Assembly (NCBI GenBank): GCA_030043155.1 | Contig: JASHYE010000243.1 | Span: 1-5,428 of the forward strand | DNA from: Candidatus Acidiferrales bacterium | GTDB taxonomy: Bacteria > Acidobacteriota > Terriglobia > Acidoferrales > UBA7541 | Direction: 5' to 3' | DNA length: 5,428 bases | Shown here: one piece after another, positions 1 through 5,428 of the stretch | Layout of the letters: the number at the start of each line of letters is the position of its first letter | Numbering within the stretch: the stretch's first letter is position 1 | Notes under the pieces: generated by a model | Seen by the model: only the letters and a program-made list of their open reading frames with translations | Databases searched by the model: none | What the model was told of the DNA's origin: nothing | Program-made: the position numbers and the translations under genes

Positions 1-437
1 TTTCCAACGGCGAAAGTTGTTTGGGGCTGGAATGTCCCGTCTCCATTGCCCAGCAAAATGGAGACTGTATTATCCGTTTGGTTTACCACCGCCAAATCGA
101 AATCTCCGCTGCTCGTGAACTCCGTAGTTGCAAGAGCTACAGGATTCTTGCCGGTGGCGAAGGTGCCTTTCAGCGTGAATGTTCCATCGCCATTGCCCAG
201 GAAAATCGAAACCGTGTTGTCCGTTTCGTTCAGAACTGCCAGATCAGGAATGCCGTCATTGTTGAAGTCCGCAGTCACTGCCGCTATAGGTCCGTTACCC
301 GTAGTTAAGGTCGCACCGGTGGTGAATGTTCCATCTCCGTTGCCCAAGAGTATGGAAACTGTGTTACTCGAGTGGTTCACCACGGCCAAGTCGGCGTTTC
401 CGTTCGAGGTGAAGTCGCCGGAAACTACCGCAACGGG
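1..437 (-). repeat. Three tandem 147-bp units encoding 49-residue FG-GAP/VCBS repeats
   Basis: Units lie at 437-291, 290-144 and 143-1 (the last lacks about two residues at the edge). Each encodes P-[VI]-A, then a [DE]F-x-x-x-G-x-x-DLAV loop, then N-x-x-[DS]-NTVSI-[LF]-LGNGDGTF. The V of NTVSI falls at residues 514, 563 and 612, giving an exact 49-residue period. The DNA of the units differs at many third positions while the protein is well kept, so these are old repeats held by selection. FG-GAP repeats normally form beta-propeller blades, often with calcium in the D-rich loop. Only the middle unit keeps the full D-x-N-x-D-G-x-x-D pattern (D544, N546, D548, D552). More copies may continue past the left edge. 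Confidence 0.9.
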
Positions 438-1898
438 ATCTTGCCCTGTGCCGATTGTCGATTCGGGAAAGAGGTTTGAGGAAGTTGCGGATATAGATCC
501 GGCTGCGGTCAGACTTGAGGAATACTGCGCTAAATCAATGGGGACGCGATCACCAACGAAAAACGAGGTTGGCTCGCCGTTTTCGGCTCGTAAGAGAATC
601 TGACGCCCAGCCCGAACGGTGTTCAAGGTATCCGAGAACGCCAGGGCAGCTCCCGGTAGCGTAGCCAGGAATGTTGTCTTGCCTCCACCGAACGCGATGA
701 GCGGCGGTATCAGCGACCCAATTCCAACCGATCCTTCTCCGATAAGAGAGGCCAATTGCGTGGAGCTCAAACCGGACAATGCGCTGCTCGTTCCGAATAT
801 CTGCTGGATTACCGACACCAGTCCCGACGCTCCCGATTCCGCTTCCTGAATCTCCTGTGAGCTTAATGAAAAAGCCTGCGCCGTCTGTGGCGGCGTAATG
901 CCGAGTTGGGTAGCTGCGTTGCGGTCCACTTCCAGCACTTCCATCTCCAATACCAGTTCCCCGCGTGGCTGCTCCAGTTGATCCAGCAGTTGCGCCGCCA
1001 CCGAAACCGCCTGCGGAGAAGCGCGCATCGTAATGGTTCGGCTTTGCAGGTTCAGTTCGGCCCGCGTGATGCCGGCGATCTCGCGGATCAAACGAACATC
1101 TTCCGTCATATCGTCAGTTGTTTCTGCTGCGGGGAGTTGTACAGTGCGAACAATGGAAAGATCGTAAGCGCGTCTTTTTTGAGCCGTATCCTCCGCCACA
1201 AAAAACATGCCAGGAGTCAACGGCCGCCAGAAAGTGTCGGTCACATCTCCGAGCACTCGCATGGCTTCGGCAAAGTCTACATCTTCGATTTTCACGTGAA
1301 CGGGCCGCCGTGGGAGTTCCACATCAAAGGAAGCGTGAACTCCGAACTGACGAGCGACCTCCTGGTACGCGCTCTTGATGTCGTCGCGAAAATCGAAGCT
1401 TCGCGTGCCGGGTAAAGGGTTCATTCGCACCACGCCGCTGGGTTCCAGCATGAGCTTGCGGAGCGCTTCCAGCGACGAAGGCGCTAATTGCGCCAGGCGT
1501 TCACGAATGATTTGGTCGCCCGGATCAAGCGCAAGAGCGGCTTGTAACTCGCTGCGCGCCTCAGGCATATTTCCCAAAAGAGCATCCTGTTCCGCGCGGT
1601 CGACTTTTTCACCGACGATTTTCCCGCGAGCGAATTCGCGTCTAAACAAATATTCGCGGCTGGTCGCGTTATCTTTATACGCCTCTGAATAGGCGGCGAA
1701 GGCTGCGACCCAGTCCTGGCGTTTCTCGGCTTTCAAGCCTCGAGCATAAGCGGCATCTGCGGCTTTTGTGTTTGGCGCAGGAGCGGCCGGGCGTACTGCT
1801 GGGGATTGAGACGTTGCCTGAGGCTTCGCGACGGTCATTTGCGAGCCTGCGGTCAGAGCGGCGCAAGATAGGAAGGTCAGGATTGCGTTCAAGCGCAA
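1..1898 (-). CDS. Secretin-family (type II/III secretion or pilus-type) protein with TPR-like N-terminus and FG-GAP repeats, 3' end outside window
   Basis: The frame is open without a stop from 1898 to the left edge (632 whole codons). Seen: a short hydrophobic N-terminus (MRLNAILTFLSCAALTAG) fitting a signal peptide, a Pro/Ala linker at about 30-45, a TPR-like Ala-rich helical region at 46-138, an STN-like domain at about 167-238 (DDIKSAYQEVARQFGV, then VHVKIEDVDFAEAMRVLGDV), an N1-like domain at about 247-311 ending LLDQLEQPRG, the start of the secretin barrel (ELVLEMEVLEVD at 314), and VGDRVPI at 448-454. Three FG-GAP repeats follow from 488. Secretins of this build form outer-membrane pores for type II secretion or type IV pili; which system this serves is not visible. 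The TTG start at 1898 is chosen because an in-frame TAA lies just upstream, AAAAGG precedes it by 9 bases, and it keeps the signal peptide; the first ATG (1838) would delete it. The rest of the barrel domain, if present, lies beyond the left edge. Family call is firm, exact role unknown. Confidence 0.85.
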   Translation of the reverse strand, partial: MRLNAILTFLSCAALTAGSQMTVAKPQATSQSPAVRPAAPAPNTKAADAAYARGLKAEKRQDWVAAFAAYSEAYKDNATSREYLFRREFARGKIVGEKVDRAEQDALLGNMPEARSELQAALALDPGDQIIRERLAQLAPSSLEALRKLMLEPSGVVRMNPLPGTRSFDFRDDIKSAYQEVARQFGVHASFDVELPRRPVHVKIEDVDFAEAMRVLGDVTDTFWRPLTPGMFFVAEDTAQKRRAYDLSIVRTVQLPAAETTDDMTEDVRLIREIAGITRAELNLQSRTITMRASPQAVSVAAQLLDQLEQPRGELVLEMEVLEVDRNAATQLGITPPQTAQAFSLSSQEIQEAESGASGLVSVIQQIFGTSSALSGLSSTQLASLIGEGSVGIGSLIPPLIAFGGGKTTFLATLPGAALAFSDTLNTVRAGRQILLRAENGEPTSFFVGDRVPIDLAQYSSSLTAAGSISATSSNLFPESTIGTGQDPVAVVSGDFTSNGNADLAVVNHSSNTVSILLGNGDGTFTTGATLTTGNGPIAAVTADFNNDGIPDLAVLNETDNTVSIFLGNGDGTFTLKGTFATGKNPVALATTEFTSSGDFDLAVVNQTDNTVSILLGNGDGTFQPQTTFAVG

Positions 1899-2088: not shown

Positions 2089-3351
2089 ATGCTTTCCGCG
2101 CTTCTGGTCGCTCTCCGTGAAGGTGTCGAGGCCGCCCTTGTTGTCGGCATCGTCCTAGTCTATCTCAATCGCACAGGGCGCCGTGCGCTCACGCGCTACG
2201 TTTGGGCAGGGCTTGCCCTCGCCGTTGCCGTCAGTTTTGCCGCAGCAGTTCTTCTGGATCGCTGGCAGATCAGCGAAGACGGGTTCGAAGGCCTCCTGAT
2301 GCTGCTCGCCGCGGTGTTGGTCGTTTCCATGATCATCTGGATGAACCGCATCGCGCGGCGATTGCGCAAAGAGATTGAGCAGCGCATCGAGCGATACGCA
2401 CAAAAGGGCGAGCGCCTCGCGGGATGGGGAATCGGGTTTTTCGTTTTTTTGATGGTTCTTCGTGAAGGCGCGGAGCTCATTCTCATTTTGAAAGCCGTCG
2501 AATTGTCATTTGACGGCCTGCAAGTCTGGATCGGCACAGGCCTGGGCATCGCGCTCGCCGTATCTGTCGGCATATTTTTCTTTCAGGGCACTCTGAAAGT
2601 TCCTCTGGGCCGTTTTTTTGCGGCGACAAGCACAATATTGATCGTTATCGCCGTTCAGCTCTCGCTTACGGGACTCCATGAAATGAGCGAGGCGCTTTGG
2701 CTCCCTTCGAGCTCGCACGAAATGGCGATCGTCGGTCCGATCGTCGGAAACGAGTATTTCTTTTTCGTCGTGATTCTTGCAGTTGCCGCGATTGTGGTTT
2801 TGCGCGAATGGTTCGCGCTTCGTGCCGCGGCTGTGAATTCTGTCGAAAACCCGGCGGAAAGGCGCCTCCGCCAGCACGAGCATCGCCGCAGTCGCATTTG
2901 GACCGCGGCCACAGCCTTCCTTTGCCTGGTGGTGATTCTCTCGTTGACCGCCGAGTTTGTCTACACGCGCGCAGCGGCCGCGCCGCCCACAGCGGAAAAG
3001 CTTGTCGCTACTGGAAATACTGTCCGCGTCCCGCTTTCGGATATGAATGGCGTGAATCTTCACTTCTACTCGGTGGATGTCCAAGGCTCGTGGATACGGT
3101 TTTTGGTGATCCGAAAGCCCAACGGTCAGTACGCAACCGCGCTGGATGCTTGCCAGATTTGCGGAGCTAAGGGCTTTCGCCAGGAGGGCTCAATGCTCAT
3201 CTGTCGCAATTGCGGCGCGCCGATTAACACGACGGCCGTCGGAATGCCCGGCGGATGCAATCCCATTGCGTTCACGTCGCACGTGGACGGCGGAGATCTC
3301 GTCATTGACGCATCCGCGATTTCCGCAGCCGTCTCTGAAATTCAAAAATAG
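2089..3351 (+). CDS. FTR1-family iron permease fused to a C-terminal DUF2318 (FtrD-like) cysteine-rich domain
   Basis: 420 residues. The N-terminal part (about 1-245) is an FTR1 permease: seven hydrophobic segments near 1-26, 37-56, 65-85, 111-135, 145-165, 176-196 and 223-243, with the iron-binding motif REGxE twice (REGVE 10-14 in segment 1, REGAE 125-129 in segment 4) and GLHEMSEALWLP at 195-206. An eighth segment (about 272-293) leads to a C-terminal domain with C355-x-x-C358, C372-x-x-C375 and a GGCNP motif (C390), the signature of DUF2318, the domain of FtrD in the FtrABCD iron system. By topology that domain should be periplasmic. Known for the family: FTR1 moves ferric iron, often oxidised from Fe(II) in transit; DUF2318 is thought to handle electrons or metal. 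The start is fixed by an in-frame TAG at 2077 and by the REGxE motif position. No clear Shine-Dalgarno is seen (the start is preceded by CAAAACGTC). First gene of the operon, under the candidate Fur palindrome. Confidence 0.92.
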   Translation: MLSALLVALREGVEAALVVGIVLVYLNRTGRRALTRYVWAGLALAVAVSFAAAVLLDRWQISEDGFEGLLMLLAAVLVVSMIIWMNRIARRLRKEIEQRIERYAQKGERLAGWGIGFFVFLMVLREGAELILILKAVELSFDGLQVWIGTGLGIALAVSVGIFFFQGTLKVPLGRFFAATSTILIVIAVQLSLTGLHEMSEALWLPSSSHEMAIVGPIVGNEYFFFVVILAVAAIVVLREWFALRAAAVNSVENPAERRLRQHEHRRSRIWTAATAFLCLVVILSLTAEFVYTRAAAAPPTAEKLVATGNTVRVPLSDMNGVNLHFYSVDVQGSWIRFLVIRKPNGQYATALDACQICGAKGFRQEGSMLICRNCGAPINTTAVGMPGGCNPIAFTSHVDGGDLVIDASAISAAVSEIQK

Positions 3352-3374
3352 AACCGAGTGCGCGCCGAGAATAA

Positions 3375-4673
3375 ATGTTCATTCGCCTCGTCAAAGAATC
3401 GTTTCTTCGCAATCCGCGACGCAAATTACTCACCGGCGTCGCGATTGTTTTGGGCATGACGGTTGCCACGGCGACCTTCACAGTCGCTGTGGACGTTGGT
3501 GATCAGCTCGCCCGCGAATTTCGCAGTTTCGGCGCCAATTTGCTGGTCACTCCGCGCGCGGACACCTTGCCGGTGGAAGTCGGCGGTGTCGATTACCGGC
3601 CGGTTTCGGAGGGCGCTTATCTTTCGGAAGCCGATCTGCCCAAACTGAAAGCAATTTTCTGGCGCCACAATATTCTTGGATTTTCGCCTTTCTTGGATGT
3701 CCCAGTTAGCGTCACTGATTCCCAACAAGGTCGTCCGGATGCCGATTTCTCTGCCACTCTCATCGGTACCTGGTATAAGCATCCGGTTTCCGTGGAAGAT
3801 GGTTCGATATTCACCACAGGCGCGAGCTTCACACATCCGTGGTGGAAGATTCGCGGCCGATGGTTCACCGAGGGTTCAACGGAATGCGTCGTGGGCGCGT
3901 CATTGGCGCAAAAATACGGCCTAAGAATTGGCGATTCGTTGAAGCTATCTCGCCGAGGTTCCTCCGACACGGAGGCATTCACGGTCGCAGGCGTTATCTC
4001 CACGGGTGATTCCGAAGACGATGCCATCCTTTGCCCTCTTTCCGCCGCACAAAATTTGGCCGGGAAACTGGGGCAATTTCGCAGACTTTCTGTCAGCGCC
4101 TTGACAAAGCCAGAGGACGCTTTCTCTCGCCGGAATCCGAACACCATGAGCCCAGCTGAATTTGATCGCTGGTACTGTACGCCTTACATCAGTTCCATCA
4201 GTCGGCAAATCGAGGAAGTTTTTCCCGATACCCAGGTGCGTCCGGTCCGGCGCATTGCGGATACGGAAGGCCGCATCCTTTCTCATGTGAGTTTGTTGCT
4301 ATGGATTGTCACCATAGCCGCGCTCATCGCAGCGGCGCTTGCCGTTGCGGCAACATCGGCAACGACGGCGATGGAGCGCCGGTCCGAAGTGGGGTTAATG
4401 AAGGCCCTCGGCGCGTCAAATTTTCTCGTGGGCAGCCTTTTTCTTGCTGAGCAGATTCTGCTCGGCGTGGTTGGCGGCTGCATTGGATTCGCAATCGGAG
4501 CGGGTTTGGCCCGCGAACTGGGTGAAACCGTTTTTGGCATCGCGACCTCTCCTCGGCTGATTGTCTTGCCTGTCGTTCTGGCTGGCGCAATGCTGATTGT
4601 AATCATCGGAAGCTGGATTCCGCTGTATCGAGCCGCGCATGTTTCGCCAGCCCCAATTCTGAGGGGCGAATGA
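3375..4673 (+). CDS. FtsX/MacB-like ABC transporter permease, first of a pair, iron-system associated
   Basis: 432 residues. One membrane segment at about 18-40, a large extracytoplasmic domain at about 41-303, then three membrane segments at about 304-330, 350-380 and 395-416, the layout of MacB/FtsX-type permeases. The FtsX domain carries RRSEVGLMKALGAS (335-348), the loop that contacts the ATPase in this family, and ends with IPLYRAAHVSPAPILRGE (415-432), the usual P-x-x-x-A-x-x-x-x-P-x-x-x-LRGE tail. There is no ATP-binding domain, so a separate ATPase is needed, expected downstream. It starts 23 bp after the FTR1 gene with only a weak ribosome site (GAGA at 3367) and overlaps the next gene, so all three are likely co-transcribed. 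Similar permease pairs accompany FTR1 and DUF2318 genes in Campylobacter (Cj1661/Cj1662). A general MacB-type exporter role is the alternative, but the neighbours point to iron. Confidence 0.9.
   Translation: MFIRLVKESFLRNPRRKLLTGVAIVLGMTVATATFTVAVDVGDQLAREFRSFGANLLVTPRADTLPVEVGGVDYRPVSEGAYLSEADLPKLKAIFWRHNILGFSPFLDVPVSVTDSQQGRPDADFSATLIGTWYKHPVSVEDGSIFTTGASFTHPWWKIRGRWFTEGSTECVVGASLAQKYGLRIGDSLKLSRRGSSDTEAFTVAGVISTGDSEDDAILCPLSAAQNLAGKLGQFRRLSVSALTKPEDAFSRRNPNTMSPAEFDRWYCTPYISSISRQIEEVFPDTQVRPVRRIADTEGRILSHVSLLLWIVTIAALIAAALAVAATSATTAMERRSEVGLMKALGASNFLVGSLFLAEQILLGVVGGCIGFAIGAGLARELGETVFGIATSPRLIVLPVVLAGAMLIVIIGSWIPLYRAAHVSPAPILRGE
4661..4666 (+). promoter_or_regulatory. Ribosome binding site of the second permease, inside the end of the first
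   Basis: GAGGGG lies within the last codons of the first permease, 3 bases before the ATG at 4670 and 6 before the ATG at 4673. Counted from its GAGG part the spacings are 5 and 8. It is the clearest Shine-Dalgarno in the operon and points to coupled translation of the two permeases. Confidence 0.6.
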
Positions 4674-5428
4674 TGTTCAAACGGCTCCTGTGGCATCTGC
4701 TGCGAGGAAACAAAATCCGTTTGACTGTGGCTTTGCTTGCGCTTATCAGCGGGGCAGCAGTGATTTCAGCCCTGATGAATCTGGAGTTTGGCGTCAGCCG
4801 GGAGCTTGCCCAGGAATTTCGTTCGCTGGGAGCAAATGTGGTCATCTCTGCGCTGTCAGAACCTGCTGATACACATGGTACGGCTGCTCCGCTGCTGATC
4901 GATACGTCCGTCATGCATTCCGTTGAGACATCGCAATCGTCTGGTGTAAAGGCGTCGCCGTTTCTCTACTTGGCGGCGCGCGTGGAGGCCACATCGCCTC
5001 AAAATGTCGTGGTCGCCGGTACCTGGCTCGATCGCGCCGCGCAGTTATTTCCGTGGTGGCAGATCACAGGTAGTTCCTCGATTTCGCGCGCCGATCTAAC
5101 GCGCTGCTGGATTGGCCGAAACGTGAGTCGGAGCCTCAGTCTCGCCGTTGGCAGCGCGCTTCCAATTCATTACGGCACTCGCACCGTGAATCTCACCGTT
5201 GCCGCCATTGTGGACGCCGGTGGTCCAGCGGACAACCAGATATTCGTGAACCTTCCCGTCGCACAGAACCTGGCCGGCGCGGATGGCAAAACACAGTTCA
5301 TTGAACTCAGCGTTCCAGGCTCAACCGAGGATATTCGTGCAGTTCAAAATCACTTGCAATCGCTCCTGCCGGAGCTGTCCGTTGAACCCATCCCGCAAAT
5401 CACCGAAGCCGAGGGAAGCCTCCTGCGG
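4670..5428 (+). CDS. Second FtsX/MacB-like ABC transporter permease, paralog of the preceding gene, 3' end outside window
   Basis: Open to the right edge (253 codons visible, no stop). There are two adjacent in-frame starts: ATG 4670 overlaps the upstream stop as ATGA, and ATG 4673 overlaps it by one base and gives MFKRLLWHLL, matching the MFIRLVKESF start of the first permease; either may be used. Seen: one membrane segment at about 17-37, followed by an extracytoplasmic domain. It parallels the first permease throughout: LAQEFRSLGANVVIS against LAREFRSFGANLLVT, VAGTWLD, PWWQI, VAQNLAG, and ITEAEGSLLR against IADTEGRILS. The three C-terminal membrane segments and FtsX tail should follow outside the window. 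With its partner it probably forms a heterodimeric membrane core for one ABC complex, as proposed for Cj1661/Cj1662. The ATPase gene is predicted next. Confidence 0.88.
   Translation, partial: MMFKRLLWHLLRGNKIRLTVALLALISGAAVISALMNLEFGVSRELAQEFRSLGANVVISALSEPADTHGTAAPLLIDTSVMHSVETSQSSGVKASPFLYLAARVEATSPQNVVVAGTWLDRAAQLFPWWQITGSSSISRADLTRCWIGRNVSRSLSLAVGSALPIHYGTRTVNLTVAAIVDAGGPADNQIFVNLPVAQNLAGADGKTQFIELSVPGSTEDIRAVQNHLQSLLPELSVEPIPQITEAEGSLLR

What the first reader, a model, noticed from the sequence alone, without database searches (positions are those of the whole stretch)
1..560. FG-GAP propeller repeats placed straight after the secretin VGDRVPI motif
In ordinary secretins the VGxxxPI motif is followed within a few tens of residues by the next barrel strands (a GIxLxVxPxI-type motif). 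Here, 33 residues after VGDRVPI (448-454), three 49-residue FG-GAP repeats begin and run off the edge. Either a beta-propeller is inserted into the gate/barrel region, or the barrel is cut short and replaced by an adhesive or ligand-binding head. An insertion at this point would put a propeller at the pore mouth or gate, an unusual architecture for a secretion pore.
Basis: partly seen in the sequence, partly recalled or inferred. Interest (0 to 1): 0.7.

Follow-up and report, generated by a model that had tools for sequence, protein, structure and literature searches.

The report
Secretin pore gate carrying a beta-propeller
In soil Acidobacteria, a protein predicted to form a giant outer-membrane pore has a whole seven-bladed, integrin-like propeller spliced into the hinged loop that normally closes the pore, and relatives carry quite different modules at exactly that spot, so the pore's gate may have become a holder for displayed binding domains.

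Summary
The window's minus-strand gene is cut by the window edge. A 960-aa protein differing from it at 2 of 612 residues shows the rest: one closed seven-bladed FG-GAP propeller, then the second half of the Secretin domain. The propeller lies between the two hinge glycines of the central gate (Gate 1), both invariant in 107 aligned relatives; the GspD profile resumes where it stopped. Measured gate loops are bimodal: 21-48 aa without insert, 261-686 aa with. In the family of the nearest genome, 72 of 74 complete loci carry the propeller. In Bryobacteraceae, 32 of 40 examined loci are insert-free; 8 hold at the same site a propeller (2), four Ig domains (1), unclassified repeats (4) or a FliD-like pair (1). 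So this orphan secretin's gate is a recurrent insertion site for large modules. The propeller is under purifying selection. Twelve to fifteen propellers would fill or exceed the lumen; I infer that the gate loops thread them out and display them. My paper searches found no description. In the propeller family the gene is usually divergent from an FTR1 iron-permease operon.

The parts
3..1898 (-). propeller-gated secretin gene, 3' part missing at the window edge; TTG start at 1898; the closest full-length relatives have 960-981 aa
   Evidence: L001:6001-8940 is the complete orthologue at 92% identity
1836..1898 (-). N-terminal extension up to M21, hydrophobic and signal-peptide-like, present from the TTG start only
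   Evidence: sequence; a relative is filed from M21 (P0002); inference, no signal-peptide predictor was run
1485..1751 (-). TPR-like helical repeats, residues 50-138
   Evidence: TPR_14 20.5 bits, below its cut-off; helices in the model
1191..1403 (-). N0-like domain, residues about 166-236
   Evidence: strand/helix pattern; N0 and FecA-signalling-domain folds aligned to the matching part of the insert-free relative
975..1154 (-). N1/N3-type ring domain, residues about 249-308
   Evidence: Secretin_N 13.3 bits, below its cut-off; passes the cut-off in relatives P0141 and P0161
534..959 (-). first half of the secretin core, ending in VGDRVPI with the first Gate 1 hinge glycine (G449, window 552-554)
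   Evidence: TIGR02517 match 285-461 to 308-463; glycine invariant in 107 sequences
465..533 (-). linker 1 from the gate strand to the propeller, residues 456-478; low model confidence, dN/dS about 0.84 (few sites)
3..464 (-). inserted FG-GAP beta-propeller: velcro strand and the first three blades; four more blades and the second secretin half lie beyond the window
2089..3351 (+). divergent neighbour: FTR1 iron permease fused to an FtrD-like domain; within 2.5 kb of the secretin and divergent in 69 of 81 genomes of the family
3375..5428 (+). two MacB_PCD ABC permeases of the same strand (3375-4673, which also has an FtsX C-terminal domain, and 4670 onward, cut by the window edge)

Best explanation
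The gene encodes a secretin of an acidobacterial family that is not a GspD or PilQ by score and, where I looked, does not sit in a type II secretion or type IV pilus gene cluster. Shown by computation: a complete seven-bladed, FG-GAP (integrin-alpha-type) propeller is inserted at the tip of the central gate loop, between the two hinge glycines, without loss of secretin sequence; and the same loop has received other large modules on separate occasions. Inferred: each ring of about 12-15 subunits carries as many propellers on flexible tethers of about 20 residues. They would fill or exceed the lumen, so they are threaded through the pore and held outside, with the gate loops flipped up as in known open secretins. 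The pore then works as a multivalent display or receptor platform (binding a surface or ligand, probably calcium-stabilised) more than as a conduit.
Against: No experiment and no oligomer model. Surface exposure rests on volume, linker length and the kind of modules, not on a topology test. The volume sum excludes a 15-subunit ring but would leave 12 propellers barely inside at perfect packing. FG-GAP and Ig repeats are common in proteins of this phylum, so their capture could reflect supply, not function. Some members of the propeller clade have no insert (P0124 group, L179, L180), so it is dispensable there. The secretin parts of the models are only moderately confident (pTM 0.45 and 0.51).
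Confidence: 0.5

Rival explanations
1. The propellers hang on the periplasmic side of the gate and act as substrate receptors or gatekeepers that open the pore when cargo binds.
For: The insert is in the loop that opens and closes the pore. The three genomes checked also have other secretins and T2SSE-type ATPases, so a driving machine could exist elsewhere.
Against: In G001-G003 no T2SSE match shares a contig with the propeller-secretin, whereas other secretins of G002 and G003 do share one. In the loci laid out I recognised no secretion or pilus genes beside it, but I looked for seven named genes only and read the neighbours of five Bryobacteraceae loci by eye. The alternative modules (Ig, FliD-like) are of adhesin type, not of one receptor type.
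Confidence: 0.2
2. Outer-membrane partner of the divergent FTR1/MacB iron system: the propeller-gated pore admits or captures iron or an iron carrier.
For: FTR1 lies within 2.5 kb and divergent in 69 of 81 genomes; both genomes with an insert-free family member (G586, G587) lack FTR1 altogether; 20 of 20 propeller loci laid out have FTR1 within about 6 kb.
Against: The two FTR1-less, insert-free genomes carry sister sequences, so this may be one event. G591 has the propeller and no FTR1 match. None of the 20 Bryobacteraceae loci laid out has FTR1 near, including the two with propellers.
Confidence: 0.15
3. The module is a plug that seals a wide pore better, as the optional top gate does in some T2SS secretins.
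For: A top gate increases watertightness in XcpD (PMC10550240, passages).
Against: The site is the central gate, not the top gate. Seven-bladed propellers on long tethers are an odd seal, and the swapped modules share no shape.
Confidence: 0.1
4. A permissive loop that collects domains without function.
For: Several changes of state on the tree (at least 4 forced for the propeller); the modules are common elsewhere in the phylum.
Against: dN/dS of the propeller part is 0.065, lower than that of the secretin half, 0.128; the insert is kept in 72 of 74 complete loci of the family.
Confidence: 0.05

Closest known systems
GspD/PilQ/RcpA/pIV secretins (PF00263; e.g. 5WQ8, 6W6M, 8ODN, 7OFH)
   Different: gate loop is about 31 residues between the hinge glycines in XcpD (466-496) and in pIV (267-297), against 261-686 in the insert-bearing forms measured; scores far below the GspD and PilQ family cut-offs
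Vibrio-type T2SS secretins with top (cap) gate
   Same: optional extra element in a secretin
   Different: a two-strand loop at another place in the fold, between alpha10 and alpha11 (PMC10550240, passages)
Integrin-type beta-propellers of bacteria (PMC3192720, passages read)
   Same: seven FG-GAP blades, DxDxDG-like calcium loops
   Different: the main text of that paper holds neither 'secretion' nor 'outer membrane'; here the propeller sits inside a secretin gate
Amuc_1098-type secretins with N-terminal TPR (NCBIfam NF042912)
   Same: N-terminal TPR-like stretch matches weakly
   Different: far below its cut-off; the best match to that model is the TPR stretch only

Membership tests
Secretin (PF00263) | Secretin domain above the Pfam cut-off | tested here: met
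   P0002 72.8 bits against 27.5, residues 804-932, profile 39-168; six insert-free relatives 81.5-99.2 bits across the site, profile 17-20 to 166-169
Secretin (PF00263) | secretin fold | tested here: met
Secretin (PF00263) | two Gate 1 hinge glycines | tested here: met
   G429 and G827 of P0002 invariant in 107 sequences; the hinge role is taken from PMC8563730 and PMC10550240 passages, matched by motif
Secretin (PF00263) | 12-15-fold ring in the outer membrane | not testable with these tools
   no oligomer prediction available
T2SS GspD (TIGR02517) | curated score cut-off | tested here: not met
   65.4 bits (P0002) and 92.7 bits (P0124) against 351.35
Type IV pilus PilQ (TIGR02515) | curated score cut-off | tested here: not met
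   52.1 and 72.4 bits against 284.35
T2SS / type IV pilus locus | T2SSE ATPase gene near the secretin | tested here: not met
   in G001-G003 every PF00437 match is on a contig other than the propeller-secretin's; contigs are short, so this is local only
Integrin-type FG-GAP propeller | seven FG-GAP blades | tested here: met
Integrin-type FG-GAP propeller | calcium-binding DxDxDG-like loops | tested here: met
   DFNxDGxxD in 3 of 7 blades of P0002; 1-6 per protein in 101 relatives; calcium binding itself not tested

The most novel reading that the evidence does not exclude
A new class of 'display secretins': ring pores whose central gate loop has become an exchangeable socket for large extracellular-type modules, each ring exposing about 12-15 propellers, Ig arrays or other repeats through its own pore.
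Probability: 0.45. Interest if true: 0.85.

Novelty: new variant of a known kind. Interest (0 to 1): 0.68.

Why it matters
Gate loops of the secretins described in the papers I read are about 30 residues, and changes in the gate region make cells leaky or block secretion. Here the loop tip carries a domain of about 39 kDa in the window's protein (261-686 residues over the measured inserts), in every subunit, acquired repeatedly and with different domains. So the gate can carry bulky folded cargo. That makes gating, threading of folded domains through the pore, and a non-secretory role for secretins directly testable. Acidobacteria are abundant in soil (general knowledge), and the form is near-universal in the one family surveyed (72 of 74 complete loci).

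Tried and rejected
Truncation with an adhesive head: rejected, the barrel half follows the propeller.

Assembly or annotation artefact: rejected. It occurs in 119 of the 120 listed protein clusters from several sources, at conserved synteny, under purifying selection.

GspD of a T2SS or PilQ of a pilus: rejected by score.

Single ancestral propeller shared by Acidiferrales and Bryobacteraceae: not excluded but disfavoured. The two Bryobacteraceae propellers are each other's best match (54.8-56.0%), and are no closer to the Acidiferrales gate propellers (best 241 and 273 bits) than to FG-GAP proteins outside the secretins (best 242 and 284 bits).

BACON identity for the repeats of L169, L208, L210 and L211: a recalled guess. 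Pfam gave no support (L169, L208 and L211 scanned, L210 not). The best PDB hits of the L208 insert are TAL-effector repeats, which I read as a composition effect. L215 resembles FliD weakly (NCBIfam E 1.1e-4; PDB E 0.022).

BLAST self-comparison of inserts printed nothing; a half-against-half alignment with shuffles showed the internal repeats instead. No secretin is among the rows shown by Foldseek or VIA for the full propeller model, because the propeller fills the lists; hence the separate model of an insert-free relative.

My automated motif mis-set one loop length (L229, printed as 333; its HMM gap is 411) and gave no length for some loci. Three rows with cut N-halves (L276, L279, L280) were left out of the tree. 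The FTR1 count covers 81 of the 88 matching genomes: the 7 without a usable N-half row were left out.

Full report
WHAT IS THERE. The ORF is on the minus strand, 1898 to 3 (632 aa, open at the window edge). No own genome is held. The missing part is supplied by P0002, a 960-aa protein that differs from the window at 2 of 612 compared residues, and by L001, the complete orthologue at 92% identity in a record titled Candidatus Acidiferrales. In both, the repeats are followed by the second half of PF00263 (P0002: residues 804-932, 72.8 bits, cut-off 27.5). So this is an insertion, not a replaced barrel.

HOW CLEAN THE INSERTION IS. The GspD profile TIGR02517 matches the window protein at profile 308-463 before the insert (weakly, 18.3 bits) and P0002 at 460-595 after it: no profile position is lost. 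Insert-free relatives exist: 6 of the 120 listed hits have PF00263 and no FG-GAP domain (P0124, P0131, P0141, P0151, P0152, P0161; 609-626 aa). In them PF00263 runs unbroken across the site, from profile 17-20 to 166-169, and TIGR02517 from 302 to 591 (P0124). They align to the insert-bearing proteins on both sides of the site.

WHERE IT SITS. In XcpD the central gate is the loop 466-496 between two pivot glycines (PMC10550240, passages). In pIV, Gly267 and Gly297 are the Gate 1 hinges and the tip 275-289 is disordered (PMC8563730, passages). Here the matching glycines, of VGDRVPI and of YEDIGLK, are P0002 G429 and G827, and both are invariant in all 107 sequences of alignment A3. The insert lies between them. 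The equivalence is by motif, not by a residue-level structure alignment: the PDB alignments printed start after the first motif.

SURVEY; 848 proteins at E <= 1e-10; of the 120 listed, all have FG-GAP domains and 119 have PF00263 (P0074 is a fragment); the other 728 were not seen. Family of the nearest genome G001 (89 genomes): 88 match. Of 85 loci fetched, L001 and L002 included, 74 hold both secretin halves in one ORF; 72 of these have the propeller between them (HMM gap 368-680 aa), and 2 (L179, L180) have a 30-aa loop; the other 11 are not complete in one ORF. Family of G003, whose record is titled Bryobacteraceae (150 genomes): 148 match. I examined 40 loci: L003, 19 of the highest-scoring, and 20 chosen for long open frames, so not a random sample. 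Of these, 8 have an insert at the gate site: L003 and L160 propeller (by my own profile); L161 four Ig domains (PF13927, PF07679); L169, L208, L210 and L211 repeats that I could not classify (462-472 aa); L215 a FliD-like pair (261 aa). The other 32 are insert-free, with loops of 21-28 aa in the 31 that the motif measured. In a phylum-wide sample (396 genomes, 306 matching, partial matches included) the 29 best loci other than G001's are all insert-free (HMM gap 21-55 aa). The Ig form recurs: 6 of the 120 listed hits have Ig domains with PF00263. Some inserts of the propeller family are longer, because Big_2 or He_PIG domains sit among the FG-GAP repeats (L254, L250, L236, L270).

HISTORY. A quick maximum-likelihood tree of secretin columns only (152 rows) needs 5 changes of the propeller state (starred branches force 4), and 8 between insert and no insert (6 forced). 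Insert-free members are nested among propeller-bearing ones in the propeller family, so loss is likely there. L161 (Ig) is sister to two rows with the unclassified repeats (support 98), so one module has probably been exchanged for another. The two Bryobacteraceae propellers resemble each other (54.8-56.0%) but are no closer to the gate propellers of the other family than to other FG-GAP proteins, which suggests separate capture. Some branches are long and the method was the quick one.

SELECTION. Window against L001, Nei-Gojobori: dN/dS 0.065 for the propeller part in the window (residues 479-632), 0.128 for the secretin half, 0.84 for the linker (few sites). One pair of sequences only.

SURROUNDINGS. 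In 22 loci of the family laid out, truB, rbfA and infB lie tail to tail with the gene in 21, not L290; nusA was seen in 19. FTR1 lies on the other side in 20, MacB1 and MacB2 in 19 (L002 ends at the contig edge). The two insert-free loci, L298 and L299, lack FTR1 and MacB. By genome search, FTR1 lies within 2.5 kb and divergent in 69 of 81 genomes, 5.4 kb away in 1, on another contig in 8, and absent in 3: G586 and G587 (insert-free) and G591 (propeller-bearing). The 20 Bryobacteraceae loci laid out have other neighbours, in part MscS-like and SIS-like by my reading of five of them; no FTR1 was found in any of the 20. G001-G003 each carry one or two further secretins and T2SSE ATPases on contigs other than the propeller-secretin's; in G002 and G003 one of those further secretins shares a contig with a T2SSE match.

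MECHANISM. Shown: the anatomy, the site, the recurrence, the selection. Inferred: 12-15 propellers (567,000-709,000 cubic angstroms) would fill or exceed a lumen of pIV's dimensions (90 A wide, 96 A high, about 611,000). Fifteen cannot fit; twelve would need almost perfect packing with nothing else inside. They therefore most likely stand outside the channel. The gate hinges upward in open secretins, the linkers are about 20 residues, and the modules are of adhesin type, so I favour exposure at the cell surface. The periplasmic alternative stays open.

LITERATURE. 'secretin' with 'FG-GAP' gives 6 papers; by title and abstract start none concerns a bacterial secretin. Further searches (20 of 39 papers listed) found no description, as far as listings and abstract starts show. 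The library holds open-licence papers only. Of the papers cited I saw passages, not whole texts.

Noticed in passing
window 2089-5428 and L282-L297, L300, L301, L001, L002: FTR1-FtrD fusion followed by MacB permeases, divergent from the propeller-secretin and within 2.5 kb in 69 of 81 genomes; recalls (from memory) the Campylobacter P19/FTR1 iron cluster.
   Followed up: partly
L254:408-4448, L250:574-4203, L236:19-3564, L270:2-3523: Ig-like domains (Big_2 or He_PIG) lie among the FG-GAP repeats: an insertion within the gate insertion.
   Followed up: partly
window 1485-1751: TPR-like repeats are fused to the secretin's N-terminus; in the Tad system the lipoprotein TadD (a TPR protein, recalled) is the separate pilotin, which suggests a built-in pilotin (inference).
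   Followed up: no
P0161, P0126: Relatives are labelled Firmicutes and Binataceae by their sources; P0161's secretin core is identical to that of L179 (family of G001) in the tree, so its label is probably a binning or naming error.
   Followed up: no
L196:1-4353: An ORF of 1451 aa containing the propeller-secretin with extra length beyond its relatives; not examined for a fusion.
   Followed up: no
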